From IMG/VR virus record IMGVR_UViG_3300046692_000091, positions 250,815 through 314,814 of that record: 64,000 nucleotides of DNA. One strand, written 5' to 3'. The DNA comes from a virus. Position 1 is the first letter of the stretch, and each line of letters opens with the position of its first letter. A model generated the notes under the pieces. It worked only from the letters and a program-made list of their open reading frames with translations. It was not told where the DNA came from and made no database searches. Positions 445 to 41,654 of the stretch are shown here, piece after piece. Made by a program: the position numbers and the translations under genes.

Positions 445-2592
445 ATGGCACTACCAGAATTACCAAATCCTTTTATGTTGCCAACCAATGCGTACAAACG
501 CGATCTGGACATCATTGAAGGGGCAATTGCCGACAACGCAAGGTACTTGCAATTAATGACCTTGGCTGACTACGATAAGTGTGCAGTCTGGGTACGGGAT
601 CAATTCCGGGCAACCGGTAAGTTCCCATTGGTCGATCCCAAGACATTCGTTCTCGATAAGAACATGAATGGTGATCGATCTAAGAAAACAACTTCGTTCA
701 TGGGCTTCATCAAACGAGTTGAGAAACAGAATCTATTGTTGTCACCATCATTGACAGCATATCTGCCAGAATCCGTTCGCCAATCTACTCACGCTATCTA
801 CATCAAAGAAGGTGTAGCTAACCGTAAGAAGGTTAAAGGACAACAGATGGCAGCAGAACAAGATGGTGATTTCGAACTTGCTTCCGTCCGTAAGGGTGAG
901 CAAGAGAACTTCAAAATTAACAATAACTCCTATTCAGGAGCTACGGTTAGTGCTGCCACCATTCTGTACTACAAGTCTACTCACTCTTCATTGACTTCGA
1001 CCTGCCGTGTTGCAACGTCGTATGCTAACGCAAACAATGAAAAGTTCTTGATGGGTAACCGTCATTATTACAACCCGGAAATCACCAAGGCAAACTTGGT
1101 ATCGATCATTAACAACACCGACTATGTTTTACTACAGACGGCGATCGATAAGTACGAACTAGTTTACCCCACAGCTGAAGACGTTGTAGAGATGTGTCTC
1201 TACTCGACTAAGCATTACTGGCAGAACCGTGTGTTCACTCAACACATCCGTCAGATGGCTATGGGTATGACTCCAATCCAACGTGCAGCTGTTATGTACG
1301 TAGGTGATCTGTATCACCTGAATAAACACAACCCAATCCCAACTCGTCGGTTCTTGGAATCGATTGCTCAGATTGGCGATAACACAAACACCATGTCCCA
1401 GGAAGAATACGATAGCATTCGCGATGGTGACTTGAAGTTGTTGGTCAAGTTTCTGTGTTTCGAACAAGTCCGTGGTCGTTCTGATGAACGTTTGGAGAAA
1501 GAGAACCCTGAGGTCTTCGATCTGTTGCGCTCAACCTGTAAGACGGTTGTAGACGGTCTAGACTATCATCGTGATCTGATCAACGCGTTGTATCTGACTA
1601 AGAACATTCCTCACTCGATTCATGCATTTAAAGACTCGTATCGTCGTGCTGCAGTTATCTCTGACACCGACTCTACAATGTTTACGATGCAGTTCTGGGT
1701 AGAAGAGTTCCACGGTCGTATCTGCTTTACTCCAGAAGCTAAACGTCTGGTGTTTGGTCTAGTGTTCCTGGTATCTGAAGTTGTAATGCACATCCTGGCG
1801 ATTCAATCGGCCAACATGGGTGTGGGTGAAGACAAGCTTCGTCTGCTGGCGATGAAGAACGAATACTACTTTGCTGTGTTGTCATTGACGACTCGGTCGA
1901 AGCACTACTTTGCATCTCAGGATGCGGTAGAAGGTATCATGTTCGAAATCTCTCGAATGGAAGTTAAGGGCGTAGGTCTACGAGATTCTAAGGTTCAGCC
2001 GTTCGTTAACAAAGCGGCTAAGAAACTGATGGGTCACATCATCGATTCGGTGAAGACTGAAACTCCGTTGGATTTGCCTTCGATCCTGAAAGACATCGCT
2101 GATATGGAACGTCGCATTTACGTTTCTGTTCGTACAGGTAAAGCAGAGTATCTGACCACTGGTCAGTGCAAACAAGCGAATGCCTATAAGTCTGAAGAAG
2201 ACAACGACACGTATAAGAAGTATCTGTTCTGGAAAGATGTATTCGGTCCATCGTACGGTGAAATCCCACCACCACCATATTCGTTTGTTAAGATCTCGCT
2301 TACGGCATCTAACCGAACGAAGATGAACGAGTGGTTCGATAGTATCGAAGACAAACGTCTTGGTATGCGACTGAAGGAATGGGCACTGGCGAATAACAAG
2401 ACAGGCTTGACCTCGATTAACGTTCCTGCTTCTGTTGTAGAAAACATGGGCGTGCCAGAAGCGATCACTCGTGTAGCTGACGTACGTACCATTATCTCTA
2501 ACACCATGGGTGTGTTCTATCTCATCATGGAATCCCTGGGGATCTTCCTGATTGATGCGAATAACTCCCGTCTGATCTCGGATTTCTATTAA
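445..2592 (+). CDS. Family B DNA polymerase, C-terminal half (palm motif C, fingers)
   Basis: A 715-residue protein with the C-terminal hallmarks of a family B DNA polymerase. There is a motif B-like KINNNSYSGA at residues 157-166 (family form Kx3NSxYG) and motif C ISDTDS at 405-410, whose aspartates bind catalytic metal. No exonuclease motifs and no motif A (DxxSxYP) are present; both lie in a separate minus-strand gene at 39699-41654. I infer the two products form one replicative polymerase acting in the phage replication compartment. The ATG at 445 has AGAGG just upstream; the in-frame GTG at 397 lies in a terminator stem and is rejected. The stop overlaps the next start as TAATG. Polymerase identity is strong; physical pairing of the halves is inference. 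Confidence 0.85.
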   Translation: MALPELPNPFMLPTNAYKRDLDIIEGAIADNARYLQLMTLADYDKCAVWVRDQFRATGKFPLVDPKTFVLDKNMNGDRSKKTTSFMGFIKRVEKQNLLLSPSLTAYLPESVRQSTHAIYIKEGVANRKKVKGQQMAAEQDGDFELASVRKGEQENFKINNNSYSGATVSAATILYYKSTHSSLTSTCRVATSYANANNEKFLMGNRHYYNPEITKANLVSIINNTDYVLLQTAIDKYELVYPTAEDVVEMCLYSTKHYWQNRVFTQHIRQMAMGMTPIQRAAVMYVGDLYHLNKHNPIPTRRFLESIAQIGDNTNTMSQEEYDSIRDGDLKLLVKFLCFEQVRGRSDERLEKENPEVFDLLRSTCKTVVDGLDYHRDLINALYLTKNIPHSIHAFKDSYRRAAVISDTDSTMFTMQFWVEEFHGRICFTPEAKRLVFGLVFLVSEVVMHILAIQSANMGVGEDKLRLLAMKNEYYFAVLSLTTRSKHYFASQDAVEGIMFEISRMEVKGVGLRDSKVQPFVNKAAKKLMGHIIDSVKTETPLDLPSILKDIADMERRIYVSVRTGKAEYLTTGQCKQANAYKSEEDNDTYKKYLFWKDVFGPSYGEIPPPPYSFVKISLTASNRTKMNEWFDSIEDKRLGMRLKEWALANNKTGLTSINVPASVVENMGVPEAITRVADVRTIISNTMGVFYLIMESLGIFLIDANNSRLISDFY

Positions 2593-3392
2593 TGGATTTT
2601 GAAACGCTGCATCCTTTGCCACAAGACATCTATGCACGGGTTGTTAAAGAACTTCGTCGTATCGAGACAGATTACAATGTGACTGTCTTGTACGCCTGTG
2701 AGTCTGGCAGTCGTGCATGGGGCTTTGCTTCCATCAACAGTGATTTCGATGTACGCTTTGTCTATGTGCCGAAGATTGACTGGCACTTGGATATCGACAA
2801 GCAACGGAACGTGATCGATTCACAGATCCCAGAGTTCGATCTGGACATGAGTGGGTGGTCCTTGGGTAAAACCTTGGGCCTGTTGCGTAAGTCTAATCCA
2901 GCTCTACTGGAATGGTTGGGTTCACCGCTGGTGTACATGTACCGTCCAGAAAGACAGGATCTGAAAGAACTGGCTCTCCGTCAATTCAATCCTGATGCAG
3001 CATTCAACCACTACCTGAACCTGGCTAGTGGTACTTGGAAGCGTTTCATCTGGGATCATGATGACGTCATCTATAAGAAGTACTTCTACGCACTCCGTCC
3101 GTTGTTCGCAATCGAATGGGTGTTGAAGTATGGAATGATGCCTCCGACCGAATACGAGAAACTAGTTGCTGACTTCTCACCATCGCCAACATTGCAAGCC
3201 GCAATGGATGAACTGATGGCATTGAAGATGTCCGGTGATGAAACCCGTGTCGGCCCACGTATCCCAGAATTGGATAACTTCATCTGGAACCAGTTGGATA
3301 AGTTCAAAGGCATGTTGGTTAAAGCACCAGAAAAGCCTGACGATGAACCATTGAAAGAGTTCTTCCGTAAGACCGTTCGCAAATACGATTGA
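2592..3392 (+). CDS. Predicted nucleotidyltransferase (RlaP/YcgL-like fold)
   Basis: A 266-residue protein with the nucleotidyltransferase signature GS (residues 39-40) followed by DFD (51-53), within GSRAWGFASINSDFDVRFVY. This pattern is typical of the predicted nucleotidyltransferase group including RlaP/YcgL (PF10127-like). Such enzymes move NMP from NTP to RNA, protein or a small molecule; the substrate cannot be read here. It is coupled to the polymerase gene by a TAATG overlap, so the two are probably co-expressed. A terminator follows at 3399. The fold call is firm, the biological role unknown. Confidence 0.8.
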   Translation: MDFETLHPLPQDIYARVVKELRRIETDYNVTVLYACESGSRAWGFASINSDFDVRFVYVPKIDWHLDIDKQRNVIDSQIPEFDLDMSGWSLGKTLGLLRKSNPALLEWLGSPLVYMYRPERQDLKELALRQFNPDAAFNHYLNLASGTWKRFIWDHDDVIYKKYFYALRPLFAIEWVLKYGMMPPTEYEKLVADFSPSPTLQAAMDELMALKMSGDETRVGPRIPELDNFIWNQLDKFKGMLVKAPEKPDDEPLKEFFRKTVRKYD

Positions 3393-8620: not shown

Positions 8621-10522
8621 ATGTCGGTAAATTCTAGCAAAACTGCAGCTCTGAACGTTCAGCCAACCATGGCTCCTGCTGCACCAGTAGTAACTCCACA
8701 ATCCCAACCTGCTCAGGTAACACAAACAATGCAACCAGCTCTCCCAGTTTCCAATGGTATCGGTGGTCTCAACCGTACCTTCAGCCGTTCCGGTCGTGCC
8801 GATGGCAATGATGCCCGCACCACCAAGGCTTTCGTAGCATTCAGCGAAGCACAGAAAGAAGCAATCGAACAGCAAGACCTGTCGGATACCTTCCACCTGT
8901 TCCGCTTCGACCGCACTGCTCACCAAGTAGCAATGGCGTCGATCCTGGTTCTGAAACTGGTTGATAACCGCGGTAAGCCAGCAATCCTGGTTAAAGCTCT
9001 GCCGATCGTCGATGCTTCCGCAATCGTCAAGCCGAAGACTTTCCAGATCGCTAACGGTTTCAGCACTTTCGACAAGTTCGAATCCAAGCCTGATTCCGGT
9101 GACATCTTCACTCCGCTGTACTGGGGTCGGATCGTTGCTCACGTTCGTCAAGTAACTGGTCACCCAGATGCTACCGTTTACAACGCTGGTCCACAGGACA
9201 TCCACGCTGAGTTCGACTTCGAAGACAAGATTGCCGTGCGCAACCTGTTGATCAAAGCAGTTAACTCGGTTGAAGACACCATGGCTCGCCTGAGTGATGA
9301 GCGTCCGTTCTCCCTGGCTACCGACATGCAATCCGCTGACGAAATCCTGGCGGCTACCATCGACTATACCGGTACTCCGGTTGAATCGAACACCGGTATC
9401 CCACAGCGTGCGGACATGGTCGTAAGCCTGCAGCGCCGTAAGAAGCACAGCAACCAACAGGTTCAGGAAAACGAGTACTACGATGCTGACTCTCAGCTGA
9501 ACTCGGTTTCGATGTTCGTCGATCTGGAATACTCGCCTCAGCAAGTACAACAAGTCTTCGGCATGCCAGCTGGTCCACTGCCACCTCCGTTCATGCCAGC
9601 TCTGGTAATCACGGCTGTTAAGCAAGCGAACTGGATCATGGCTAACACCCCAGAAATGTACTTCTTCGCTCTGGGTAACGCATACCGTGCAACCAACGGT
9701 CAAGGCTGGGCTAAACAGTTCCTGCCAACCATCGGTCGTATCAAAGATCCACGTGACATCGGTGCTGTTGGTTACCTGACTGCAAATGGTCTGAAAGTTG
9801 AGACCAAGTCCGAAACCTTCACCGAGCAAGACTTCGCTGGTCTGATGTTCTCCCAAGTTCAGCAGAACCCAGTCATCATGATCGACCTGAACCGCATGGG
9901 TGATAACTCGTTCATCGAAACCATGATCATCGATTCGATGGGTGGTCCAAACGAGCAAGCTGCTAAAGCTGGCCTGGTACGTATCTTCTGCAACCTGTAC
10001 GGTCGTGAGAACTTCACCTCGCTGTTCGATGTGAACAACGAATGGCTGTTCCGTCCATACGGCACCGACTTCCACCTGGGTTACTACCCAGATGAGAATG
10101 GCGAGCGTCGTGACCGTCGTGATCTGGATACCCTGTACGCACTGAACGCATGTGATGGTGTTGTTGCAGAGTTCATGGATTGGTACGCAGCTAAGTGCAA
10201 CCCTAACGTCCACGCTGAAGTTCGTCTGAAGAAGTCGGAACAGTACGACAAGCAATACCTGGGTAACGTAACTTACGCTGGCCGTGTTACTCGTGCCATC
10301 GTCAACCCGAAACTGATCGCTGCTATGGATGCTGCACAAGCGAAAGCTGGTATCGCAGTCACCATGGACAACATCGGTTCCGTGTTCGGTGGTCAGCGCT
10401 TCCAGGGTAACGTTGGTCTGGTTGGCATGAACGTTCAAGGCATTGCCTCGGTCGCTTCCTACATCCAGAACCAAAACGTCTACGCTCCGGCAGTAGGTGG
10501 CATGACTGGTCTGATGTACTAA
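8621..10522 (+). CDS. chmA: Putative phage nucleus shell protein (ChmA/PhuN-like)
   Basis: A 633-residue protein, close to the roughly 600-630 residues I recall for chimallins, which self-assemble into the proteinaceous shell around replicating phage DNA. It has a flexible low-complexity N terminus (about residues 1-50, Ala/Pro/Gln/Thr-rich), a large globular body and a Gly/Met-containing C-terminal tail; chimallins likewise have disordered ends used for tiling. It is unpaired in function with any enzyme motif. Context supports the call: an early-type promoter and strong AAGGAAAG site precede it, and the RNAP beta' N-terminal gene follows, as gp54-gp55 in phiKZ. Identity rests on size, layout and synteny, not a search. 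A major virion protein is the main alternative. Confidence 0.65.
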   Translation: MSVNSSKTAALNVQPTMAPAAPVVTPQSQPAQVTQTMQPALPVSNGIGGLNRTFSRSGRADGNDARTTKAFVAFSEAQKEAIEQQDLSDTFHLFRFDRTAHQVAMASILVLKLVDNRGKPAILVKALPIVDASAIVKPKTFQIANGFSTFDKFESKPDSGDIFTPLYWGRIVAHVRQVTGHPDATVYNAGPQDIHAEFDFEDKIAVRNLLIKAVNSVEDTMARLSDERPFSLATDMQSADEILAATIDYTGTPVESNTGIPQRADMVVSLQRRKKHSNQQVQENEYYDADSQLNSVSMFVDLEYSPQQVQQVFGMPAGPLPPPFMPALVITAVKQANWIMANTPEMYFFALGNAYRATNGQGWAKQFLPTIGRIKDPRDIGAVGYLTANGLKVETKSETFTEQDFAGLMFSQVQQNPVIMIDLNRMGDNSFIETMIIDSMGGPNEQAAKAGLVRIFCNLYGRENFTSLFDVNNEWLFRPYGTDFHLGYYPDENGERRDRRDLDTLYALNACDGVVAEFMDWYAAKCNPNVHAEVRLKKSEQYDKQYLGNVTYAGRVTRAIVNPKLIAAMDAAQAKAGIAVTMDNIGSVFGGQRFQGNVGLVGMNVQGIASVASYIQNQNVYAPAVGGMTGLMY

Positions 10523-10711: not shown

Positions 10712-12232
10712 TTGGGTCTACATGCTGAAATTGTCGATCACGATCAACTATTAGCGAGTCAACGAGGAATCGTAAAGTTCGCTAACGATTACAATGCATC
10801 CAATACTGAGTCGAAAGAAGAGTTCCAACGAGCTCTATATTCTCACTTCGATAACGTAGATGCCATTGAAGTATCGGCTAGTTGTGAATGTGGTCATATG
10901 GACGAGGCTTATGACCTCGGCGTTGTGTGCAGTAACTGTAGTACACCTGTAGTATCCACAGCAAGCCAACCGATTGTGCCATCCATGTGGATGCGTGCAC
11001 CAGAAGGCGTTCGATCGATGATCTCTCCGGAGTTATTGATCATGTTGCTGGGACACATGCAGGGCAAGGAGTTCAACTTCCTAGCGTACTTCATGGATAC
11101 GACGTATCAATTTGATGCTAATACCATTTCCTCTCGCGAAACAGATCGCAAGGTAAAGCGACTGCTGCAACAAAACATTCCACGGGGCTTGAACTATTTC
11201 ATCGACAACTTCGATGCGATCATTAAGTTCTGTATGGACTGCGGTATCATTGGTACTGGCAAACATGAGTTCTATGAATTCTTGGTGCAGAATAAGCATG
11301 CCTTGTTCCCAACAGCTATTCCGATTCCAACCAAACTCTGCTTCGTCGTAGAATCCACAACATCGGGTTCCTATATCGACAAGCCTATCGGTCCTGCGAT
11401 CGATGCTGCTCTCACAATGGGTGGTATCCAACATAGCCCGATTCCACTGAAACCAATCACAGTACAGAACCGTACTGCGAAAGCATTGTTACTCATGGCG
11501 ATGTTCCATGAGAACTATAACAAGCAGCGTATCGCACAGAAGCCTGGTCTGGTTCGTCGACACGTATTGGGTGGCCGTCTCAACTTCACCGCTCGGGCAG
11601 TAATTACATCGATCAGTGCACCGCACCGTTATGATGAACTTCACATCCCATGGGGCGTTGCATGTCAGCTGTTTAAATATCACATCTTGAACAAGCTCAA
11701 GCGTCAAGGCATGACTACAATGGAAGCCCTGGGTTTCCTGTATTCGAATGTGTTGCAGTATAACGATCGGTTGAATAGTGTCTTCCTGGAACTCATCGCA
11801 GAAGCGAAAGAGATTGGTCCAGCATCCACCTTCCACCGAAATCCAACTCTGCAGCGTGGTTCTACTCAGCAGTTCTTCATCACGAAAATCAAGACAGACT
11901 TGACCGATAACTCGATCTCGATGTCCGTGCTGTGTTTGAAAGCACCTAACGCCGACTTCGATGGCGATCAGCTCAACCTGACCCTGATGCCAGATAACTA
12001 TCTGACTGATGCTACGGAACGAATCGCTCCACACACGTGGGTATTATCGATTGATGATCCACACGAAATCTCTGGTAACCTGGAACTTCAAGGGCCAGTG
12101 GTAGAAACGATCGTGAACTATGCTCACGAAGATTATCTGGGTGCTCCTCCTGAAGCATACCGTCACTTGCTGGATGAGGAGTGGACTGAGTTCGTTCCAT
12201 TCAAGCAGGCCAAGTATGAATTCACTGGATAG
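10712..12232 (+). CDS. RNA polymerase beta'-like subunit, N-terminal part
   Basis: A 506-residue protein carrying the invariant catalytic motif NADFDGD (residues 413-419), whose three aspartates hold the active-site Mg in all multisubunit RNAPs, and an N-terminal zinc-binding set (C58, C60, C73, C76). It stops soon after the catalytic region; the rest of beta' is in a separate gene, probably 26269-28242. By synteny it corresponds to the phiKZ non-virion RNAP subunit next to the shell gene. The start is TTG 10712 with GAGGT upstream; the ATG at 10707 is out of frame and closes after a few codons, and the next in-frame ATG would cut into the zinc site. Confidence 0.9.
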   Translation: MGLHAEIVDHDQLLASQRGIVKFANDYNASNTESKEEFQRALYSHFDNVDAIEVSASCECGHMDEAYDLGVVCSNCSTPVVSTASQPIVPSMWMRAPEGVRSMISPELLIMLLGHMQGKEFNFLAYFMDTTYQFDANTISSRETDRKVKRLLQQNIPRGLNYFIDNFDAIIKFCMDCGIIGTGKHEFYEFLVQNKHALFPTAIPIPTKLCFVVESTTSGSYIDKPIGPAIDAALTMGGIQHSPIPLKPITVQNRTAKALLLMAMFHENYNKQRIAQKPGLVRRHVLGGRLNFTARAVITSISAPHRYDELHIPWGVACQLFKYHILNKLKRQGMTTMEALGFLYSNVLQYNDRLNSVFLELIAEAKEIGPASTFHRNPTLQRGSTQQFFITKIKTDLTDNSISMSVLCLKAPNADFDGDQLNLTLMPDNYLTDATERIAPHTWVLSIDDPHEISGNLELQGPVVETIVNYAHEDYLGAPPEAYRHLLDEEWTEFVPFKQAKYEFTG

Positions 12233-23683: not shown

Positions 23684-24049
23684 CTATTTAAATTTTCTAC
23701 TCATATAGAGTCGAACGATGTTGTCAATCTGGTTTTGGTTAGGCCTGATCAACACTGGTCGAACCAATGGGTTACTCGGATCACGCATTTCTTTAGCGAA
23801 TTGATTCGGATTAGTCATTCCATTTATACGCAGATGAATGAAGTGGTATTCTGGAGGAATGCCCTTCTCCACTAGGTAACCGTAAAAATCACCTTCATAC
23901 TGATAGAAGAGATCCAATGGGATGTCCTCTACTGCTGCGGCCCGGTTGATTAGTAAGTTGAGATGCGTCTCTAACACCAATCGGAAATCCGAGTCGTAAT
24001 ATAATTCCGATCCCGGTTTAGCCATTTTGTTGAAAATCGTGAAGGCCAT
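23684..24049 (-). CDS. Unknown 121-residue protein
   Basis: A minus-strand gene with AGGA eight bases before its ATG. It contains a helical N terminus and a compact C-terminal part (YHFIHLRINGMTNPNQFAKE). It diverges from the RNAP beta C gene over the shared palindromic promoter element. No family recognised. A TATATTAC-like sequence on this strand at 23996-24003 lies within codons and is not treated as a promoter. Confidence 0.7.
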   Translation of the reverse strand: MAFTIFNKMAKPGSELYYDSDFRLVLETHLNLLINRAAAVEDIPLDLFYQYEGDFYGYLVEKGIPPEYHFIHLRINGMTNPNQFAKEMRDPSNPLVRPVLIRPNQNQIDNIVRLYMSRKFK

Positions 24050-24074
24050 TGTAGTTTTCCTATTGCATTGGATT

Positions 24075-24088
24075 TCAGATATATATCA
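24075..24088. promoter_or_regulatory. Palindromic AT-rich promoter-like element (divergent junction 2)
   Basis: TCAGATATATATCA, identical to 7107-7120 and again between divergent genes (minus start 24049, plus start 24114). The GATATATATC core is palindromic and could serve both directions. Confidence 0.55.
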
Positions 24089-24113
24089 CACTATTGCTAA
24101 CCAAACAGGAGCA

Positions 24114-26261
24114 ATGCCAACAGTGTATCAAGTCTCTGAAGCATATCAACAAAAACTGCGTGATCGTAACATTGATGAAACGCTATTGGGTAATGCGTGT
24201 CTCGATCCGTTTTATGGAACGACATCGTCTGCACGTGGTGCCATGTTCTTGTCGCACATTGGCCAATCCCCAGAGTCTGAAGGTTGTGAACCTCGCCGAT
24301 TCCAGGCTGGTATGGAAATGCAGTTTGGTGAATACACATTCGATGTGAAGTTCCCAGTAGACTGTGTGATCCTGAACGTTATTCGTAAGTATCCTACCTC
24401 GGGTATGGGTTCTGCGATTCGACGTAACCCAGTGACTACAATCATCTTCGAACATTATTACGATAAGCATAAGACGAAAGATGTCTTGCATATCAGTGAC
24501 TATTGCTCGATGCACCAGGACTTCGGTTTCAAGCTCGAAAAGAACAAGAAGGTAATGGAGAACCTGGTCCCAGGCCAGATGTTTGCCAAAGGTACTGTCA
24601 TCGCACAAACCCGTGCTGTTCGTGAAGACGGAATGTGGGGTGGCGGTGTAAACATGAATGCCATGTTCATGTCGATGCCTGGTACTATTGAAGACGGATT
24701 CGTGTTCTCTGATCGTGCATTGGAGAAGCTCAGTCCCCGCATCTATAACGATGCGATCGGTAACGCTGGTCGTAAAGCATTCTTCCTGAACATGTATGGC
24801 GATGAGAATCTCTATAAGCCATTCCCAGACATCGGTGATAAGATCCGTCCTGACGGTGTGGTCTTCGCTCTACGGGATCTTGATCCAGATCTGTCTCCAG
24901 CAGACATGACTTCTCGGGCACTGATGACACTCGACCGAACATTCGATCGGGCTACTATCGGTATCCCAGGTGCAACTGTAGTTGATATCAACATCTATCG
25001 TGATGATCGGGTTAACCCATCGCACACACCACTCGGTATGGATGAACAGCTCGTTAAGTATCACACGGCGCTGTCGAACTATTATCGAGAGATCATGAAA
25101 GTCTATCAAGGACTCTATGGTCGTTGGAAAGAATCGCTACGGATCACTCCAGCATTCCACCAACTGGTAGTAGAAGCTCAGATCCATCTACCTGTTAAAC
25201 AAGAACAGCGTAAGCTCAGCCGGATGTATCGTCTGGAGCCATTGGATGAATGGCGTGTAAGTCTCACCTATGAAGCTATCAAGATGCCTGGTGGTGCTTA
25301 TAAAGCTACCGACTGGCACGGTGGTAAGGGTGTAGTCTGTGAAGTGAAGCCATGGCAGGATATGCCAGTAGACCAATGGGGTAACTATGCCGACGTTGTG
25401 ATCTTCGGTGGCTCTACCATGCGACGGTCGAACTATGGTCGACTGTATGAACAAGGTCTAGGTGCAGCTGCACGAGATCTGGTACAGCGTCTGCGTGTAG
25501 AGAAAGGCCTGGATCGTCATGAGACTCCAACTGAAGCCCAGTTGAAAGCAGTAATGGCAGATCGGGAATGGGTTGACTATGCTTTCAAAGAGCTGATCGA
25601 CTTCTATCACATCGTAGCGCCATCGATGCCAGAGATCTTGCTGGATCAACCTGAACCTGCACAGCATGTGTATCACGTATTGCGCGATCAGTATTATCTG
25701 TTCACCCCGGTAACAGATCAGGTAAGTCTGATGGAGTGCGTTAACAAGATCACGAACTCTCGGTTCTGCCCGAACTTCGGTCCTGTAACATATCGAGATC
25801 AAGCTGGGCGTGTAGTGACTACGGTCAAGAACGTCTTGAGTGGTTATCTGTATATCATGCTGCTGGAGAAGATCGGTGAAGACTGGTCCGCTGTAGCTTC
25901 TGTGAAAACACAACCATTCGGTCTGCCATCGAAATTGAATAACTCTGACCGGGCATCTACTCCTGGTCGTGAAACAGCTATTCGTTCTCTTGGTGAATCG
26001 GAAACCCGCTCGTATAACTCGGTAGTCGGTCCAGAGCCTACTAACGAACTGGTAGATCAAACCAACAACCCACAAGCGCACATCGCGGTAGTTAACTCTA
26101 TCCTGACTGCGGACATGCCAACCAACATCGCCAGAGCAGTTGACCGTAAGGTAATCCCATTCGGTAACTCTCGACCAGTTGCATTGCTGAATCACTTACT
26201 GGAATGTCGAGGTCTGCGCCTCGTCTATAAACCAGACTCCGAAATCCGTTACGCTGCTTGA
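24114..26261 (+). CDS. RNA polymerase beta-like subunit, C-terminal part
   Basis: 715 residues. Two beta signatures are visible: MPGTIEDGF (188-196), matching the bacterial WxGYNYEDA region, and DWHGGKG followed by DMPVDQWGNYADVVIFGGS (from residue 400), matching RHGNKGV...EDMP..G.P.DI.LNP. The conserved GxKG-type lysine and DMP loop contact the nucleic acid scaffold in cellular RNAPs. The N-terminal half of beta is not in the window. The next gene is the beta' C-terminal part, eight bases on. ATG 24114 has AGGAGC upstream; an earlier in-frame start is rejected because it overlaps the divergent gene and promoter. Confidence 0.92.
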   Translation: MPTVYQVSEAYQQKLRDRNIDETLLGNACLDPFYGTTSSARGAMFLSHIGQSPESEGCEPRRFQAGMEMQFGEYTFDVKFPVDCVILNVIRKYPTSGMGSAIRRNPVTTIIFEHYYDKHKTKDVLHISDYCSMHQDFGFKLEKNKKVMENLVPGQMFAKGTVIAQTRAVREDGMWGGGVNMNAMFMSMPGTIEDGFVFSDRALEKLSPRIYNDAIGNAGRKAFFLNMYGDENLYKPFPDIGDKIRPDGVVFALRDLDPDLSPADMTSRALMTLDRTFDRATIGIPGATVVDINIYRDDRVNPSHTPLGMDEQLVKYHTALSNYYREIMKVYQGLYGRWKESLRITPAFHQLVVEAQIHLPVKQEQRKLSRMYRLEPLDEWRVSLTYEAIKMPGGAYKATDWHGGKGVVCEVKPWQDMPVDQWGNYADVVIFGGSTMRRSNYGRLYEQGLGAAARDLVQRLRVEKGLDRHETPTEAQLKAVMADREWVDYAFKELIDFYHIVAPSMPEILLDQPEPAQHVYHVLRDQYYLFTPVTDQVSLMECVNKITNSRFCPNFGPVTYRDQAGRVVTTVKNVLSGYLYIMLLEKIGEDWSAVASVKTQPFGLPSKLNNSDRASTPGRETAIRSLGESETRSYNSVVGPEPTNELVDQTNNPQAHIAVVNSILTADMPTNIARAVDRKVIPFGNSRPVALLNHLLECRGLRLVYKPDSEIRYAA

Positions 26262-26268
26262 GGTATTA

Positions 26269-28242
26269 ATGAATCATTACAAAGCCCGTGACTTGCTGAA
26301 TCTGTCTTATGAACAGCTATGGGCACTGCCCTCGGAATGGCACGTCATTGAGTTTGATGATGGAAAGCAGTTACTAGCTCGGGATCGGATCACTAAGCTG
26401 TCCGTTCTGAACTGGTATCCGCTGAAAGCGTATCCAGATGTACCGATCTTGAAAGAGTATCACATGGGTTCGAAGCGAGTGACTGCAAAGTCACTCATCA
26501 CCCACCTGAACAAAGTCATCTGGGGTATTCACGATCATACCAACGAAGAAGCTGATCCAGAGCACCTGGCTCGGTTAGCAATCGAAGCAACTAACTGGTT
26601 GTATAACGAATGTACGGTGAATCTATCCCCGTATGTAGCAACGCTGTCGATGTTCGATATCGCTGAAGTATATAACCACCCAGCAATCCGGGAAGCAAAC
26701 GAGAACGTAGAAGAATCCACCTATGGCATTGAATCCGTCGCGTACAAAAAGATCGGTGCAGCGTTCGATGACATTGCGAACTTTCGTGGTAACTCCATCA
26801 TTGAAGGTTATCGGTCTGGCACTCAGAAGCTGGAACAACTGCTGCAAGCATTTGGTCCACGGGGTTATCCGACTGACATCAACTCGGACATCTTCGCACA
26901 TCCGGTAACAGTTGGCTATGTAGATGGTATCTGGGATCTCTATGGTTCCATGATCGAATCTCGTTCAGGTACCAAAGCGTTGCTCTATAACAAAGAGCTG
27001 CTGCGGGTAACTGAATATTTCAACCGGAAGTCTCAGCTGATCGCTCAGTATGTACAGCGTCTCCACAAAGGTGATTGCGGTACTCCAATCCTCATCGACT
27101 TCCCGGTCCTGAAGAACACACTCAAAGCTCTGCGCGGTAAGTATTATCTGCGTGAAGATGGCGTGATGGATTGGATGCGCGGTGATGAAACGCACATGAT
27201 CGGTAAGATGATCAAGATGCGTTCGGTACTGGGTTGTACTCACCCAGACCCGGCCGGTGTATGTTCTCGTTGTTATGGTCGGTTGGCATTCTCGATCATG
27301 CGTGGGACTAACATCGGTCAGGTATCTGCCGTATCGATGGGCGATAAGATTACCTCATCGGTATTGTCCACTAAACACACCGACGCAACCTCTGCGGTAG
27401 AGCAGTTCCAAATCACTGGTGCCGTAGCACGATATCTCCGTGATGGCGATCAAAGTGAAACGTTGTATTTGAAGAAAGACTTGGCTAACCAAGGATATAG
27501 ACTAATCATCAAGACAGCTGAAGCAACATCTCTAGCCGACGTACTGATGATCAAAGACCTATCGGCATATCCAGCTGAAAGTGCATCTGAACTGACACAC
27601 ATCGGTTTGATTCGCACTGTCGAAGGAGAAGATCTGGGTGACATTCTCCCAGTGTCGTTGTATAACCGTAAGGCAAGTCTCTCCACTGAAATGCTATGTC
27701 ACGTACAACGAGTAGGCTGGATCACAGACAACCGCGATAACATCGTGATTGATCTGACAGGGTTCGACTTCGAACAACCATTCCTGACGTTGCCTTATAA
27801 GCACGTGAACATGTACGAGTTCATGAAGCGCGTACAATCGTTCCTGCACTCCGGTGACAATGGCGATGGTTCTAAGTTGTCCTCAGACAAGGTTGGCTTC
27901 ACTAGCAAAACCTATCTGAAGAACTATAAAGATCCAGTCGATGCTATTGCTGCATTCGCTGCATTGATCAATGAGAAGATTCGTCTGAACATCGTTCATT
28001 GTGAAGTTCTGGTATACGCTATGATGATCGTATCGGCGTCTGCTAAGGATTACAACTTGCCAATCCCAGGTATCACGGGTTCATTCGAGAAGTATAACAA
28101 AGTAATGGACAACCGTAGTCTTGCTGGCAAGCTGGCTTTCGAGAAGCAGCATGAGCCACTTAATAACCCAGGCAGCTTCCTGTATAAAAACAGGATCAAC
28201 CACCCTTACGATACAGCTGTAATGGGGGGTTGCATGTCCTAA
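26269..28242 (+). CDS. RNA polymerase beta'-like subunit, C-terminal part
   Basis: 657 residues. It has SRSGTKALLYN, matching the beta' bridge-helix neighbourhood (SGARG in bacteria), the zinc/trigger region VLGCTHPDPAGVCSRCYG (Cys332 and Cys335), and a trigger-loop-like STKHTD with His370 where bacteria have RTFHTGG. Together with the NADFDGD gene at 10712 it would complete beta'. Its ATG sits six bases after GAGG spanning the beta-gene stop, so beta C and beta' C are translated together. Corresponds by order to phiKZ gp74. A terminator follows. Confidence 0.92.
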   Translation: MNHYKARDLLNLSYEQLWALPSEWHVIEFDDGKQLLARDRITKLSVLNWYPLKAYPDVPILKEYHMGSKRVTAKSLITHLNKVIWGIHDHTNEEADPEHLARLAIEATNWLYNECTVNLSPYVATLSMFDIAEVYNHPAIREANENVEESTYGIESVAYKKIGAAFDDIANFRGNSIIEGYRSGTQKLEQLLQAFGPRGYPTDINSDIFAHPVTVGYVDGIWDLYGSMIESRSGTKALLYNKELLRVTEYFNRKSQLIAQYVQRLHKGDCGTPILIDFPVLKNTLKALRGKYYLREDGVMDWMRGDETHMIGKMIKMRSVLGCTHPDPAGVCSRCYGRLAFSIMRGTNIGQVSAVSMGDKITSSVLSTKHTDATSAVEQFQITGAVARYLRDGDQSETLYLKKDLANQGYRLIIKTAEATSLADVLMIKDLSAYPAESASELTHIGLIRTVEGEDLGDILPVSLYNRKASLSTEMLCHVQRVGWITDNRDNIVIDLTGFDFEQPFLTLPYKHVNMYEFMKRVQSFLHSGDNGDGSKLSSDKVGFTSKTYLKNYKDPVDAIAAFAALINEKIRLNIVHCEVLVYAMMIVSASAKDYNLPIPGITGSFEKYNKVMDNRSLAGKLAFEKQHEPLNNPGSFLYKNRINHPYDTAVMGGCMS

Positions 28243-34126: not shown

Positions 34127-34987
34127 ATGCAATTCATTATAGACAGTGTACTTACACCACTGATCACAGAAGAGCGTAAGGAGACAATCCTTAGCTGTGT
34201 AGCATCACTGGAGTCACTGGACTACCAGGCAGCACTGGATGAGCTCCACCAAGTTGTAGAGATGTCAGATGGCACTGTAGATAATGCGACTATGATCGCA
34301 CGTATTGACGATGTGATCTGGAATGCTCATGAAACTATTTTCAAACAACATGAAGTACAGGTATCGATGGAGGCTTCACAAGAAGTCCGACAATCTATCG
34401 TGGAAGTGTTGTCCAGTTTCAACAAGTATGTAATCCCCGATCAACTATTAATGTTGTTCGAAGGTGGGTTCATGCCAGAAGAGATACTAGCCCATATGTG
34501 TCAACTCTTTACTTCGGTGAAGGTAGATGAAGTGTGGCCAGAGATCAAAGATGTTTCTCCTAACCTCATGCGCACAATGCGGGATGAGATTGAACGACAA
34601 GTTCGTTATCGTGGGTTAGAAGACACTGAGACTTCCCCAGTACTGCGTGTCAAGATGGTTAACGACTACATTCGTGTATGTGGTGCAGAAACATTCTCTA
34701 TGCTCTTAGACCTGTCTAATGCTGGTGTCCGTATCGGTACCCGTGAGATCGGTCCTCTTATTCAACAATCACTGGAAGCTCTGGATCGTAAAGAGCCAGA
34801 ACACGCAGCCCTGGAAATCTTTGGATTAGTATTGATGTCTAATACTCCAGTCGCAGAGATCGAAAAGAAGGTACGTGATTTGATCGGTGATTACACAGAT
34901 AACAACATGGACAATTCCCGAATGCTTGAATCTGTCAAGCCTTTGGTGAAGCTCCTTAGCGAGTACAAAGAAGATGCAAATTCGTGA
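34127..34987 (+). CDS. Unknown 286-residue protein preceding the second RNAP gene
   Basis: The ATG at 34127 has GGAAGAGGG upstream. The earlier in-frame ATG at 34094 lies in the TATG promoter motif. All-helical in appearance, with repeated hydrophobic helices and many acidic residues (EVWPEIKDVSPNLMRTMRDE). It overlaps the next gene by 14 bases, so the product may be made and packaged along with that RNAP subunit. No family recognised. Confidence 0.7.
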   Translation: MQFIIDSVLTPLITEERKETILSCVASLESLDYQAALDELHQVVEMSDGTVDNATMIARIDDVIWNAHETIFKQHEVQVSMEASQEVRQSIVEVLSSFNKYVIPDQLLMLFEGGFMPEEILAHMCQLFTSVKVDEVWPEIKDVSPNLMRTMRDEIERQVRYRGLEDTETSPVLRVKMVNDYIRVCGAETFSMLLDLSNAGVRIGTREIGPLIQQSLEALDRKEPEHAALEIFGLVLMSNTPVAEIEKKVRDLIGDYTDNNMDNSRMLESVKPLVKLLSEYKEDANS

Positions 34988-36320
34988 GTACTTCATGAAA
35001 GGTCTAGAACTAGGCCTTCATAAGAAACGACAATGGATGAACTGTTTGTTCTCAGTGGTGTACAACATCAACGAGTTCGAGCACCACTACGACTATCGAC
35101 TTTATAAGGACGAACAAGGTTTATTCTTTTTCGTTCCTGGTTCCAAAGATCAGAAGGATTATATCGAAGGTTGGAAAGAAGACGTAGCGCTGCTGCACTT
35201 CCGGGACGAGTTCATCCTACAACCCAATGAGCTAATCAACTATAAAGGGCAGGGGCCACTAAAGACCTGTTATGGTAACGTATTCGTTAACCACCTGTGT
35301 CTGATTCTACCGTTCGGTGATATCTTCGAATTCCAAGACGGGTTGTTTAACCTGGGTAAGCTGGAAGCCGAGATCCTGAAACGAATGATCGATGATCCAC
35401 CGGGTAACGAAGATCCCACTATTCGTGCCACTGACGGTAAGTTGTACGTTAGTCAGTACTTGATGTTCTCGGAACACATCCTGACTCTTCCAGCTTATTC
35501 CGACGGCTTGGTTACAGCTACGACTAAGAAGTCCCTAATGGCTTCTCCTGATCGTAACCGCGTACGCGATGCTTGGATTGCACAGAACCCTGATCGACTA
35601 ACTGACCCTGCCGCAGTAGCCGAACTCAGTAACGTACTGAAGAAGCTCGATGACGAATATCTATCCGGTGATGAATCGGAAGAGTTCTATCGTTCTAAGA
35701 AGAAGCTCGAAGGTGCACGTAAGAAAGTACATTACATGTTCGGTGCTGAATCTGCATTCTCTGATGGCACTAAAGTAGAGCTGATTGCTAAGTCGTTGGA
35801 AGAAGGCATTGACATGGATAAACTTCCGGTCATGTTTAACTCTCTACGAGCTGGTTCTTATAACCGTGGCAAACAAACAGCATTGGGTGGTGAATCGACT
35901 AAAACGATTTATCGGATGGTTGGTACTGCACGAATCGTTGAACACGACTGCAATACCCATATCGGTGTTCCTACTACGTTGTATCCATTCATTGCTAAAG
36001 ACCTTGTTGGTTATGGCATGGTTAAGGATGGGAAGACCACAGTACTTACGCCTGAGTTGATTCATCAGCTTATGTTTAAGACTGTCGATATCCGTGGCCC
36101 AATGTCTTGTAAGACTGGTCGTGATGTAGACAAAGGGATTCTCGGTAAAGGTAAGAACGTTTGCGCTGTATGTGCTGGTTCTGCTTTGGCTGAAAACCCT
36201 AACGGTATTCCTGCAGCTGCTGCTGGGGTAGGTGGACGATTCCTCTCCCTCTTTCTTGCAAAAATGCATGCCACGGTACTCCGGACCGTACAGTGGGATA
36301 TGCAAACTCGCATCACCTAA
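34974..36320 (+). CDS. Second RNAP beta'-like C-terminal part (probable virion RNAP subunit)
   Basis: 448 residues. LRAGSYNRGKQTALGG resembles the beta' bridge region, SCKTGRDVDKGILGKGKNVCAVCAG (Cys397, Cys400 and an upstream Cys) the zinc region, and VGGRFLSLFLAKMHATV the trigger region with its His. It is distinct from the beta' C part at 26269. By order it corresponds to phiKZ gp80, a subunit of the RNAP injected with the genome to transcribe early genes. ATG 34974 lies inside the upstream gene with AAAGAAG ahead; ATG 34995 is an alternative. Confidence 0.85.
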   Translation: MQIREYFMKGLELGLHKKRQWMNCLFSVVYNINEFEHHYDYRLYKDEQGLFFFVPGSKDQKDYIEGWKEDVALLHFRDEFILQPNELINYKGQGPLKTCYGNVFVNHLCLILPFGDIFEFQDGLFNLGKLEAEILKRMIDDPPGNEDPTIRATDGKLYVSQYLMFSEHILTLPAYSDGLVTATTKKSLMASPDRNRVRDAWIAQNPDRLTDPAAVAELSNVLKKLDDEYLSGDESEEFYRSKKKLEGARKKVHYMFGAESAFSDGTKVELIAKSLEEGIDMDKLPVMFNSLRAGSYNRGKQTALGGESTKTIYRMVGTARIVEHDCNTHIGVPTTLYPFIAKDLVGYGMVKDGKTTVLTPELIHQLMFKTVDIRGPMSCKTGRDVDKGILGKGKNVCAVCAGSALAENPNGIPAAAAGVGGRFLSLFLAKMHATVLRTVQWDMQTRIT

Positions 36321-39366: not shown

Positions 39367-39733
39367 TTAGTAACTCACAAAGGGCGCGTGCTTGTGATAT
39401 ATCAGTGGAGGCAAACTTATCAGACAACGTGTAGTCCATTAATGCGCAAGCTTCTGAGAGCTCACGCATGAGGTCCGGATTAAGATCCGCCCAGATGGTC
39501 CATAGCTTCTTGTATTCGCCCCATGTGTCAATAGACTTGTCCACAGGGGGCTTTCCTTTACCTAGCTTCCAATCACTGGAGCCAGGGGCTATTCCTTTCA
39601 CGTCACATTGATAATGTGCTTCGATGGTGCGTCCATCTGGCATAAGAGCGAACATCGCAGAGTACCGCTTATCTCCTTGCGATGAACACTCATACCCATC
39701 ATACCGCTTCCACTGATACAGTCTTCTTTTCAA
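39353..39733 (-). CDS. Conserved phage hypothetical protein (YECSSxGDKR family)
   Basis: About 126 residues with YDGYECSSQGDKRYSAMF, MPDGRTIEAHYQCDVKG and DWKLGKGKPP, a pattern I recall from hypothetical proteins of many phages. The conserved block starts upstream of the first ATG (39655), so a TTG at 39733, inside the polymerase gene, is chosen; no ribosome site is seen there and the start is uncertain. It overlaps the polymerase gene by 35 bases and probably depends on its translation. Confidence 0.55.
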   Translation of the reverse strand: MKRRLYQWKRYDGYECSSQGDKRYSAMFALMPDGRTIEAHYQCDVKGIAPGSSDWKLGKGKPPVDKSIDTWGEYKKLWTIWADLNPDLMRELSEACALMDYTLSDKFASTDISQARALCELLNERF

Positions 39734-41654
39734 CAGGTACCGATGCTGCAATAGCTTGATCCAGAGTTGGTTCAGCCATACCGATGTCTTGCATGAATGC
39801 CAACAGCATTGTATCCAAACGAGGAGCTGACATGATCTTCTGTGTAATCTCAACACAGTTGACTCGACCAGCTGTCAAGTTAACACCAGCTTCACGACGC
39901 CACAGTTCCGACACACCTTGAATCGCTGAGAATTCCATTACCGTGGTTTCACGTGCAATGTTCAGAATCTGCGATACGTTAGGATAAGTCGATACGATGT
40001 CCAAGTCAGCTACGTGAACGTAAATCAGCGTGTGGTAGTTTGGTAGATCCTTAACACACTTAATACCGTGTTGCCCTGCCATAAACGAAGGCAGTGTAAT
40101 AATCCAGTCTCTATGCGATACCACATACTGGTCGAGTTCATGAACCATCTGATCTGAAGACGAACCGATTACTTGGCCACGTTTCAAATACCAGAAGTGC
40201 ATGTCATCGACAAGACGCTTAGGGTTAGATGCGAAGTTCTTATAATCCGAAGACTTCGAGAACAAAGTAATCGAACGACCTAAGTCATTGATCTTCTCGT
40301 CCAGTTGTTCCAGACGCATGCTGTCGATGATGTTGTAAAGACCATATTTGATCTTGTGCTTGGTTTGCATCTCACGGTGCCATTCGATACCGTTGAGGTT
40401 AGCCACTGCCTCGAACTCCAGCTTACCAAAGTCAACCTTCAAACAAACAACATCACCAATCTTCGCTTCATCTAAAGTGTGAGCTCGCTCATCATTAATG
40501 AACCAGTGTGGAAATGAACCCGGTGTCTCATTCAGTTTCTTCTCACACTTCTTCAAGAATGCTAAAAGATCACCTTCTTTCTTCAGCTCGGTTTCTTCAT
40601 TAACACTAAGCTCTTTACCCAAGATGTAGTTCAGGGCATATGAAGCTTCTTTACCCTTCGCCAAACGCGTTACACGATACGTTGACATCGAGTCGATACA
40701 TTGGAACGTAGCTGGAGCTGTAATCCAATGCCATTGATCCTGAGGGCCACGAGACTTCGATACACCCGAAGCCGTAGTCATCATTGCAGCATCTTTCTTG
40801 AAATGGAAATGACGATAGTTCTTTGGTACGTCAGCATCCGAAAATACATCTTTCGGATCGATACCGTAATCATCCAGTGCTTTCAGAATTCGAGTCATGT
40901 CGAACTCCATGTTCCAGAAAGCAAAGAAATCAGGCTTCCATTCATGCAGTCGTTTAAAACACTGAATCACAATATCAGCTGGAGTCTTAACAACTTCAAC
41001 TTCAATCTTGAGATTACGGCCATGCATCAAAGCTTTCAGCTCTGGGATAGATTCCATCTCACGGTAAGTCTCACCCACCGGATCAGCAATATCATGAACC
41101 CAGTCACCTAGATAAGCCAGATACACATTCTCTTTATGTGTAACAGACATACAGATGATCTGACCATCCTTATCGGATTCGTACACGTTAGTTTCGATGT
41201 CACCACCGGCTACCGAGTTACGAGAGATCAGACCTGGATAACGTTGCTGATAATCATTCTTTAAGCAGCATGATGAACTAACGTCAGAACCGTACAGGTA
41301 TGGACTACGTGATAGGTTACGCAGACGTGGATTAGGGCCTTGTGAATAGTCCCCTAACGTCTTAGCGATATTACGTGCTAAGTTTACCTGAGTCGACTTA
41401 TAACGCTGTAGGTTCTCAAGTACCTCATAATCTTTCTTCTCGGTATGGTTACGACGACCCTTCTGAGTAACAAAGTAAGTACGTTCATAATCCTCCCACT
41501 TCACCAGACGACTAAAATTCTTGCCGCCCTTTAAATGAATTACTTCTTTAACAAAGTGAGCATCATGTTGTTTGCCGAACTGATCCGGTACGTACGTGAT
41601 GTGCTTTGCTTCACGCCCGATAACGTCTTCCGGATTAAACTCAATCGCCGACAT
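39699..41654 (-). CDS. Family B DNA polymerase, N-terminal half (3'-5' exonuclease and motif A)
   Basis: 651 residues. Exonuclease motifs Exo I DIE (152-154), Exo II NMEFD (248-252) and a likely Exo III YNIID (440-444) are followed by polymerase motif A, DLDIVSTYPN (550-559). The chain ends soon after without motifs B or C. Those are in the plus-strand gene at 445-2592. The two halves together make one complete set of family B motifs without overlap. ATG 41654 has AGGAG at good spacing; in-frame codons further up overlap the divergent gene and are rejected. Proofreading exonuclease and polymerase function in phage replication are inferred from motifs. Confidence 0.88.
   Translation of the reverse strand: MSAIEFNPEDVIGREAKHITYVPDQFGKQHDAHFVKEVIHLKGGKNFSRLVKWEDYERTYFVTQKGRRNHTEKKDYEVLENLQRYKSTQVNLARNIAKTLGDYSQGPNPRLRNLSRSPYLYGSDVSSSCCLKNDYQQRYPGLISRNSVAGGDIETNVYESDKDGQIICMSVTHKENVYLAYLGDWVHDIADPVGETYREMESIPELKALMHGRNLKIEVEVVKTPADIVIQCFKRLHEWKPDFFAFWNMEFDMTRILKALDDYGIDPKDVFSDADVPKNYRHFHFKKDAAMMTTASGVSKSRGPQDQWHWITAPATFQCIDSMSTYRVTRLAKGKEASYALNYILGKELSVNEETELKKEGDLLAFLKKCEKKLNETPGSFPHWFINDERAHTLDEAKIGDVVCLKVDFGKLEFEAVANLNGIEWHREMQTKHKIKYGLYNIIDSMRLEQLDEKINDLGRSITLFSKSSDYKNFASNPKRLVDDMHFWYLKRGQVIGSSSDQMVHELDQYVVSHRDWIITLPSFMAGQHGIKCVKDLPNYHTLIYVHVADLDIVSTYPNVSQILNIARETTVMEFSAIQGVSELWRREAGVNLTAGRVNCVEITQKIMSAPRLDTMLLAFMQDIGMAEPTLDQAIAASVPVEKKTVSVEAV

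What the first reader, a model, noticed from the sequence alone, without database searches (positions are those of the whole stretch)
39699..41654. Family B DNA polymerase split into two genes about 37 kb apart on opposite strands
The minus gene at 39699-41654 carries Exo I (DIE), Exo II (NMEFD), Exo III (YNIID) and motif A (DLDIVSTYPN) and then ends. The plus gene at 445-2592 carries motif B (KINNNSYSGA) and motif C (ISDTDS) and lacks the others. Together they make one full set. The break falls between two catalytic aspartate motifs, so neither half can polymerise alone, and assembly in trans must be exact. I recall polymerase fragments being annotated separately in some phiKZ-like phages, so this may be a lineage trait.
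Basis: partly seen in the sequence, partly recalled or inferred. Interest (0 to 1): 0.75.

Follow-up and report, generated by a model that had tools for sequence, protein, structure and literature searches.

The report
Two-gene DNA polymerase of phiKZ-type phages
This giant phage makes its DNA-copying enzyme as two proteins from two distant genes, each holding part of one active site; the split is real, shared by the whole phiKZ-type phage lineage, and already described in the literature.

Summary
The window is the end of a 314,814-bp IMG/VR record of a phiKZ-type jumbo phage that carries chimallin; among named phages its polymerase halves are closest to Psa21. The minus gene 39699-41654 carries Exo I, II and III and motif A. 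The plus gene 445-2592 carries motif B, motif C and KxY. All these catalytic residues are invariant in 55-56 diverse relatives. Both halves independently find RB69/T4 polymerase by profile and by fold, covering adjacent, non-overlapping parts. No other polymerase of families A, B or C was found in the genome by the Pfam models tried, and no fused form occurs among 159 relatives. The same cut, between motif A and motif B, recurs across about 270-286 phage records, including Bacillus, Staphylococcus and Yersinia jumbo phages.

[quoted passage not shown] A 2025 Nature screen finds phenotypes for both phiKZ genes.

My models add that the C-half folds well alone, while the motif A stretch of the N-half does not. 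Less documented side-observations: group I introns inside the motif A codons of relatives, and a two-residue nucleotide-pocket change shared across the halves.

The parts
39699..41654 (-). N-terminal half of the family B DNA polymerase (651 aa): N-terminal domain, 3'-5' exonuclease domain, first palm segment with motif A
   Evidence: phrog_3011 E=2.5e-227; profile vs T4 gp43 residues 183-432 E=1.1e-12; Foldseek top hits RB69 gp43 E=2e-12
41193..41201 (-). Exo I D152-I-E154
   Evidence: D and E 56/56 in relatives
40899..40913 (-). Exo II N248-M-E-F-D252
   Evidence: N and D 56/56
40323..40337 (-). Exo III Y440-N-I-I-D444
   Evidence: Y and D 56/56
39981..40007 (-). Motif A D550-L-D552-I-V-S-T-Y557-P558; D552 matches T4 D408 / RB69 D411
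   Evidence: D550, D552, Y557, P558 56/56; T4 DLTSLYP at 408; AlphaFold pLDDT below 50 over residues 544-575 when this half is folded alone
445..2592 (+). C-terminal half of the family B DNA polymerase (715 aa): fingers, rest of palm, thumb
   Evidence: PF20286 E=2.8e-289; phrog_2927; Foldseek top hits RB69 gp43 E=5e-4, but low TM-score
913..939 (+). Motif B K157-INN-N161-SYS-G165 (canonical Tyr of KxxxNSxYG replaced by Ser)
   Evidence: K, N, G 55/55; S164 54/55
1663..1674 (+). Motif C D407-T-D409-S410
   Evidence: 55/55
1900..1908 (+). KxY motif K486-H-Y488
   Evidence: K and Y 55/55

Best explanation
The two genes encode the two subunits of one replicative family B DNA polymerase with proofreading. 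The N-subunit supplies the N-terminal domain, the 3'-5' exonuclease and the first palm segment, with the catalytic motif A aspartate (D552). The C-subunit supplies fingers (motif B), the rest of the palm (motif C, D407/D409) and thumb (KxY). Each is translated separately. They then associate non-covalently so that motif A packs into the palm of the C-subunit, completing the two-metal active site in trans; since the phage carries the nuclear shell protein, replication presumably takes place inside the phage nucleus. [quoted passage not shown] Shown here: the motifs, their conservation, homology of each half to adjacent parts of T4/RB69 polymerase, the same cut site in all lineages sampled, and no other polymerase found by the models tried. 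Inferred: physical association, mutual need for activity, import of both into the nucleus.
For: Complementary, non-overlapping homology to T4/RB69 gp43 and other PolBs and the same top structural match for both halves. Full catalytic set only when both are combined, invariant in 55-56 relatives per half. The C-half has no invariant acid upstream of motif B that could replace motif A. The motif A stretch of the N-half is predicted unstructured when folded alone (residues 544-575 below pLDDT 50, against above 90 for most of the exonuclease part), while the C-half alone is well predicted (88.2), as expected if the palm is completed in trans. The cut site is constant: 72-102 aa after motif A (149 in FLC9) and 139-168 aa before motif B in 22 phages. 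No other polymerase found in the genome. Published: antisense knockdown of phiKZ 050 and of 082 each reduces phage propagation (PMC12571901 Table 1); SPN3US gp18 and gp44 called DNA polymerase subunits (PMC5694885).
Against: No complex structure, co-purification or enzyme assay of the two halves was run here or found in the papers I could read. The r=0.99 correlation of pairwise distances between the halves follows from shared descent alone. The C-half's Foldseek matches have good E-values but low TM-scores (0.2-0.3), so its palm-thumb arrangement in isolation is not reliably modelled. Iyer et al. (PMC7824862) present the C-half as a complete divergent polymerase with the exonuclease as a separate protein. 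The Nature 2025 screen also reports that knockdown of 082 induces transcription of the Pf4 prophage, which its authors read as a possible further role.
Confidence: 0.92

Rival explanations
1. The C-half is a complete, self-sufficient divergent polymerase, and the 39699-41654 protein is a stand-alone proofreading exonuclease that only associates with it (the presentation in Iyer et al. 2021).
For: [quoted passage not shown] The C-half folds confidently alone.
Against: The 'exonuclease' protein also carries motif A with D550/D552/Y557/P558 invariant in 56/56 and aligns to T4 gp43 through D408. The C-half has no conserved acid that could replace it: the best column before motif B is 45 of 55.
Confidence: 0.05
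2. The halves are rejoined into one chain by a split intein (as reported for Nanoarchaeum equitans PolB, from memory) or by trans-splicing of the RNA.
For: Split family B polymerases joined by inteins exist elsewhere (from memory). Group I introns do interrupt these genes in some relatives.
Against: Here the N-half ends about 30 aa after the last homologous residue, and the C-half begins at most about 10 aa before the conserved NPF; there is no room for intein halves. No group I intron or other RNA family in the window. Each gene has its own start, stop and ribosome-binding site.
Confidence: 0.01
3. Only one half matters: the polymerase is a decayed relic, or the split is an assembly or frameshift artefact, and replication uses another enzyme.
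For: None found.
Against: Both genes are intact and under strong constraint in hundreds of phages. The PolA, PolB and PolIII-alpha models find nothing else in the genome. Knockdown of either gene in phiKZ impairs infection (PMC12571901).
Confidence: 0.01

Closest known systems
Split-subunit DNA polymerase of phiKZ-related phages (phiKZ gp082 + gp050; SPN3US gp44 + gp18; OBP gp99 and its partner; first recognised in OBP by Cornelissen et al. 2012, as cited in PMC5694885 and PMC5105663)
   Same: Same two proteins, same cut site, same division of motifs, genes tens of kb apart and mostly on opposite strands
   Different: Nothing of substance; 64% (N) and 63% (C) identity to phiKZ in the MAFFT alignments, 92% / 91% to Psa21. 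In phiKZ the two genes lie on the same strand
RB69 / T4 gp43 (single-chain family B replicase)
   Same: Same domain order and catalytic motifs; top profile and fold match of the N-half and top fold match of the C-half
   Different: One chain in T4; low sequence identity (9-15% in the fold alignments); RB69 L415 and Y567 positions are T/S/A and S here
PF20286 divDNApol / the PhiKZ cluster of PolBs (Kazlauskas et al. 2020, PMC7544198)
   Same: The C-half is a full-length member (profile positions 3-705 of 705)
   Different: The Pfam family covers only the C-half; motif A and the exonuclease are in phrog_3011
Split B-type polymerase of Methanothermobacter thermautotrophicus (Kelman et al. 1999, cited in PMC3984812)
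   Same: Precedent for one PolB encoded by two genes
   Different: Unrelated host and origin; where its cut lies was not compared here
Split multisubunit RNA polymerases of the same phages
   Same: Same lineage habit of splitting large enzymes into separately encoded pieces (PMC5694885); several such subunits lie in this window
   Different: RNA polymerase, unrelated fold

Membership tests
Family B DNA polymerase | Motif A DxxSLYP-type, catalytic Asp | tested here: met
   D552-IVST-YP, aligned to T4 D408; 56/56
Family B DNA polymerase | Motif B KxxxNSxYG | tested here: met
   KINNNSYSG; K, N, G invariant; the Tyr is Ser in chimallivirus types but Tyr in PBS1, SA1 and phiR1-37
Family B DNA polymerase | Motif C DTDS | tested here: met
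   55/55
Family B DNA polymerase | Exo I/II/III carboxylates | tested here: met
   D152, E154, D252, D444 56/56
Family B DNA polymerase | PolB fold | tested here: inconclusive
   N-half: RB69 gp43 E=2e-12, TM 0.45. C-half: RB69 gp43 E=5e-4 but TM about 0.27, a model of an isolated half.
phiKZ-type split DNA polymerase | Two separate genes, cut between motif A and motif B | tested here: met
   same cut in 22 compared phages
phiKZ-type split DNA polymerase | C-half in PF20286, N-half in phrog_3011 | tested here: met
phiKZ-type split DNA polymerase | SH3-fold gene (phiKZ049) upstream of the C-half | tested here: met
   L001:389-805, 47% identical to phiKZ049, E=1e-36, just before the window start; one 132-aa ORF lies between
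phiKZ-type split DNA polymerase | The two subunits form one active enzyme | not testable with these tools
   Needs co-purification, assay or complex prediction; knockdown of each gene has a phenotype in phiKZ (PMC12571901)
Chimalliviridae (nucleus-forming phages) | chimallin (ChmA) | tested here: met
   window 8621-10522, phrog_4795 nuclear shell protein E=1e-146

The most novel reading that the evidence does not exclude
Beyond the known split, the nucleus-forming branch may have a distinctly loosened nucleotide-binding pocket built from both subunits. The motif A position of RB69 L415 is T/S/A and the motif B position of RB69 Y567 is Ser in essentially all chimallivirus-type polymerases, while the Gram-positive and phiR1-37 branches keep L/M and Y. 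In RB69, L415A lowers base selectivity several-hundred-fold, and L415A and Y567A are two of the four changes in the mismatch-accepting quadruple mutant (PMC3799440). So these phages may replicate with low intrinsic selectivity that depends on the split exonuclease subunit, or have restored selectivity by other residues.
Probability: 0.2. Interest if true: 0.5.

Novelty: already known. Interest (0 to 1): 0.25.

Why it matters
It confirms that the core replicase of an entire jumbo-phage lineage is a two-gene enzyme whose active site must be assembled in trans, presumably inside a phage nucleus in the chimallin-bearing members. It also shows that database labels mislead: the C-half alone is labelled the polymerase, and the N-half is often 'hypothetical', although it holds a catalytic aspartate. 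As a discovery it is not new; its use is as a clean case for studying split polymerases and the effect of the altered nucleotide pocket.

Tried and rejected
Fused or unsplit relatives: none among 79 C-half and 80 N-half IMG/VR loci, and the N-half profile finds nothing within about 6 kb of any C-half there; genome-contig scan with the C-half found none. Split intein: rejected, no room. Group I intron or other Rfam family in the window: none. Second polymerase in the genome: four Pfam models, none. Full text of Cornelissen 2012 and of the two earlier Kazlauskas replication papers is not held; the 2012 attribution rests on PMC5694885, which names it, and on PMC5105663, which cites it by number. 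Mirror-tree correlation of the halves (r=0.99) was computed but is not used as evidence of contact, since all core genes of the lineage share descent. phiR1-37 is an exception to the 30-40 kb spacing: its halves lie 1.7 kb apart, divergently transcribed.

Full report
Setting. The window is positions 250,815-314,814 of a 314,814-bp IMG/VR virus record. It carries the nuclear shell protein chimallin at 8621-10522 (phrog_4795, E=1e-146) and several split RNA-polymerase beta-type subunits, so it is a nucleus-forming phiKZ-type jumbo phage. Among named phages the two polymerase halves are closest to Pseudomonas phage Psa21: 92% for the N-half and 91% for the C-half.

Observation. Both ORFs are at the stated coordinates, with good ribosome-binding sites. 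The N-half (651 aa) carries Exo I DIE (D152, E154), Exo II NMEFD (N248, D252), Exo III YNIID (Y440, D444) and motif A DLDIVSTYP (D550, D552, Y557). The C-half (715 aa) carries motif B KINNNSYSG (K157, N161, G165), motif C DTDS (D407, D409) and KHY (K486, Y488). Family searches agree: phrog_3011 'DNA polymerase' for the N-half, PF20286 'Divergent Family B DNA polymerase' and phrog_2927 for the C-half, with E-values from 2.5e-227 to 2.8e-289. Every catalytic residue named above is identical in all 56 (N) or 55 (C) sequences of broad alignments.

Two halves of one enzyme. A profile of the N-half aligns to T4 gp43 residues 183-432, through the motif A aspartate D408 (E=1.1e-12), and finds RB69 polymerase in the PDB at E=2.7e-15. 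A profile of the C-half finds the motif B region of Pol zeta (3e-10) and other PolBs, and the KxY region of RB69; against T4 alone it aligns to residues 614-751, though weakly (probability 17%). The two never overlap. AlphaFold models of each half alone were compared with the PDB: the top matches of both are RB69 gp43 (N-half E=2e-12, TM 0.45; C-half E=5e-4, TM about 0.27). In the N-half model the exonuclease part is confident, but the motif A stretch 544-575 is not (all below pLDDT 50). The C-half is confident overall (88.2). This is what one expects if the palm is completed only when the halves meet. The C-half has no invariant acidic residue upstream of motif B (best 45 of 55), so it cannot easily replace motif A.

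No other replicase. Models of DNA_pol_B, DNA_pol_B_exo1, DNA_pol_A and DNA_pol3_alpha find nothing in the phage record, while they find their targets in control genomes. PF20286 and phrog_3011 each occur once.

Lineage trait. tblastn finds the N-half in 279 and the C-half in 286 phage records at E<=1e-3, and weaker searches reach Bacillus PBS1, Staphylococcus SA1 and PALS_2 and Yersinia phiR1-37. In 22 phages compared, the cut lies 72-102 aa after motif A (149 in FLC9, with a long tail) and 139-168 aa before motif B; T4 has 149 aa between the two motifs. The constant cut site argues for one ancient fission. None of 159 IMG/VR loci has a fused ORF. From the contig positions listed, counted by hand, 19 of 21 IMG/VR contigs that hold both genes have them on opposite strands, mostly 30-45 kb apart. 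phiKZ and PA7 have them on the same strand, and phiR1-37 has them 1.7 kb apart, divergent.

Literature. [quoted passage not shown] PMC5105663 says that phiKZ's 'split subunit DNA polymerase' was identified ten years after its genome. PMC7824862 describes the C-half as a divergent PolB without a fused exonuclease, the exonuclease being encoded elsewhere; the present data show that the exonuclease-bearing protein also holds motif A. PMC12571901 lists phiKZ 050 and 082 both as DNA polymerase, with knockdown phenotypes for each. I found no biochemical study of the pair in the held library.

Mechanism. The best reading is a two-subunit PolB with proofreading and a composite palm. Homology, motifs and conservation are shown here; association, interdependence and nuclear import are inferred. 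The SH3-fold gene that PMC7824862 proposes as a possible extra subunit is present just upstream of the window (L001:389-805, 47% identical to phiKZ049).

Side observations. (1) In chimallivirus-type pairs the motif A residue at RB69 L415 is T, S, A (once G) and the motif B residue at RB69 Y567 is Ser (54 of 55). PBS1 keeps L and Y in the two halves, phiR1-37 keeps M and Y, PALS_2 keeps L in its N-half and SA1 keeps Y in its C-half. The two positions lie in different subunits but in the same nucleotide pocket in RB69; L415A there lowers base selectivity several-hundred-fold (PMC3799440). (2) In PhiPA3 a group I intron interrupts the N-half gene inside the motif A codons (L060:2815-3120), and the same place is interrupted in several IMG/VR relatives; the phiR1-37 C-half also carries a group I intron.

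Verdict. The finding is real and correctly read, but already known: interest 0.25.

Noticed in passing
N-half residue T556 (39987-39989) and C-half residue S164 (934-936): Nucleotide-pocket positions equivalent to RB69 L415 and Y567 are T/S/A and Ser throughout chimallivirus-type polymerases, but L/M and Tyr in Gram-positive and phiR1-37 relatives: a paired change across the two subunits.
   Followed up: partly
L060:2815-3120 (PhiPA3), L195:7419-7675, L161:7443-7896; similar breaks in L159, L160, L198, L213: The N-half gene of several relatives is interrupted exactly inside the motif A codons; Rfam calls group I introns in PhiPA3, L195 and L161. The annotated PhiPA3 gene 085 therefore ends inside motif A.
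   Followed up: partly
L061:4611-5010 (phiR1-37): Group I intron between g167 and g164 splits the C-half of phiR1-37 after motif C, so three annotated genes there (g164, g167, g170) make one polymerase.
   Followed up: partly
L043:1638-3556 (Staphylococcus PALS_2): The PALS_2 N-half reading frame starts upstream of the annotated CDS, in the region after an HNH homing endonuclease gene, suggesting another interrupted or misannotated N-half.
   Followed up: no
window 8621-10522: Chimallin (nuclear shell protein) gene lies 6 kb downstream of the C-half.
   Followed up: no
window 10712-12232, 24027-26261, 26269-28242, 34974-36320: Several separately encoded RNA polymerase beta-type subunits, the other split enzyme of this lineage.
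   Followed up: no
window 2592-3392: A nucleotidyltransferase-family gene (phrog_14344) starts on the last base of the C-half stop codon, suggesting translational coupling with the polymerase C-subunit.
   Followed up: no
L059 (Pseudomonas phage vB_PQ1): N-half annotated as several short 'DNA polymerase' CDSs in a 184-kb record with 488 features; probably sequencing frameshifts.
   Followed up: no
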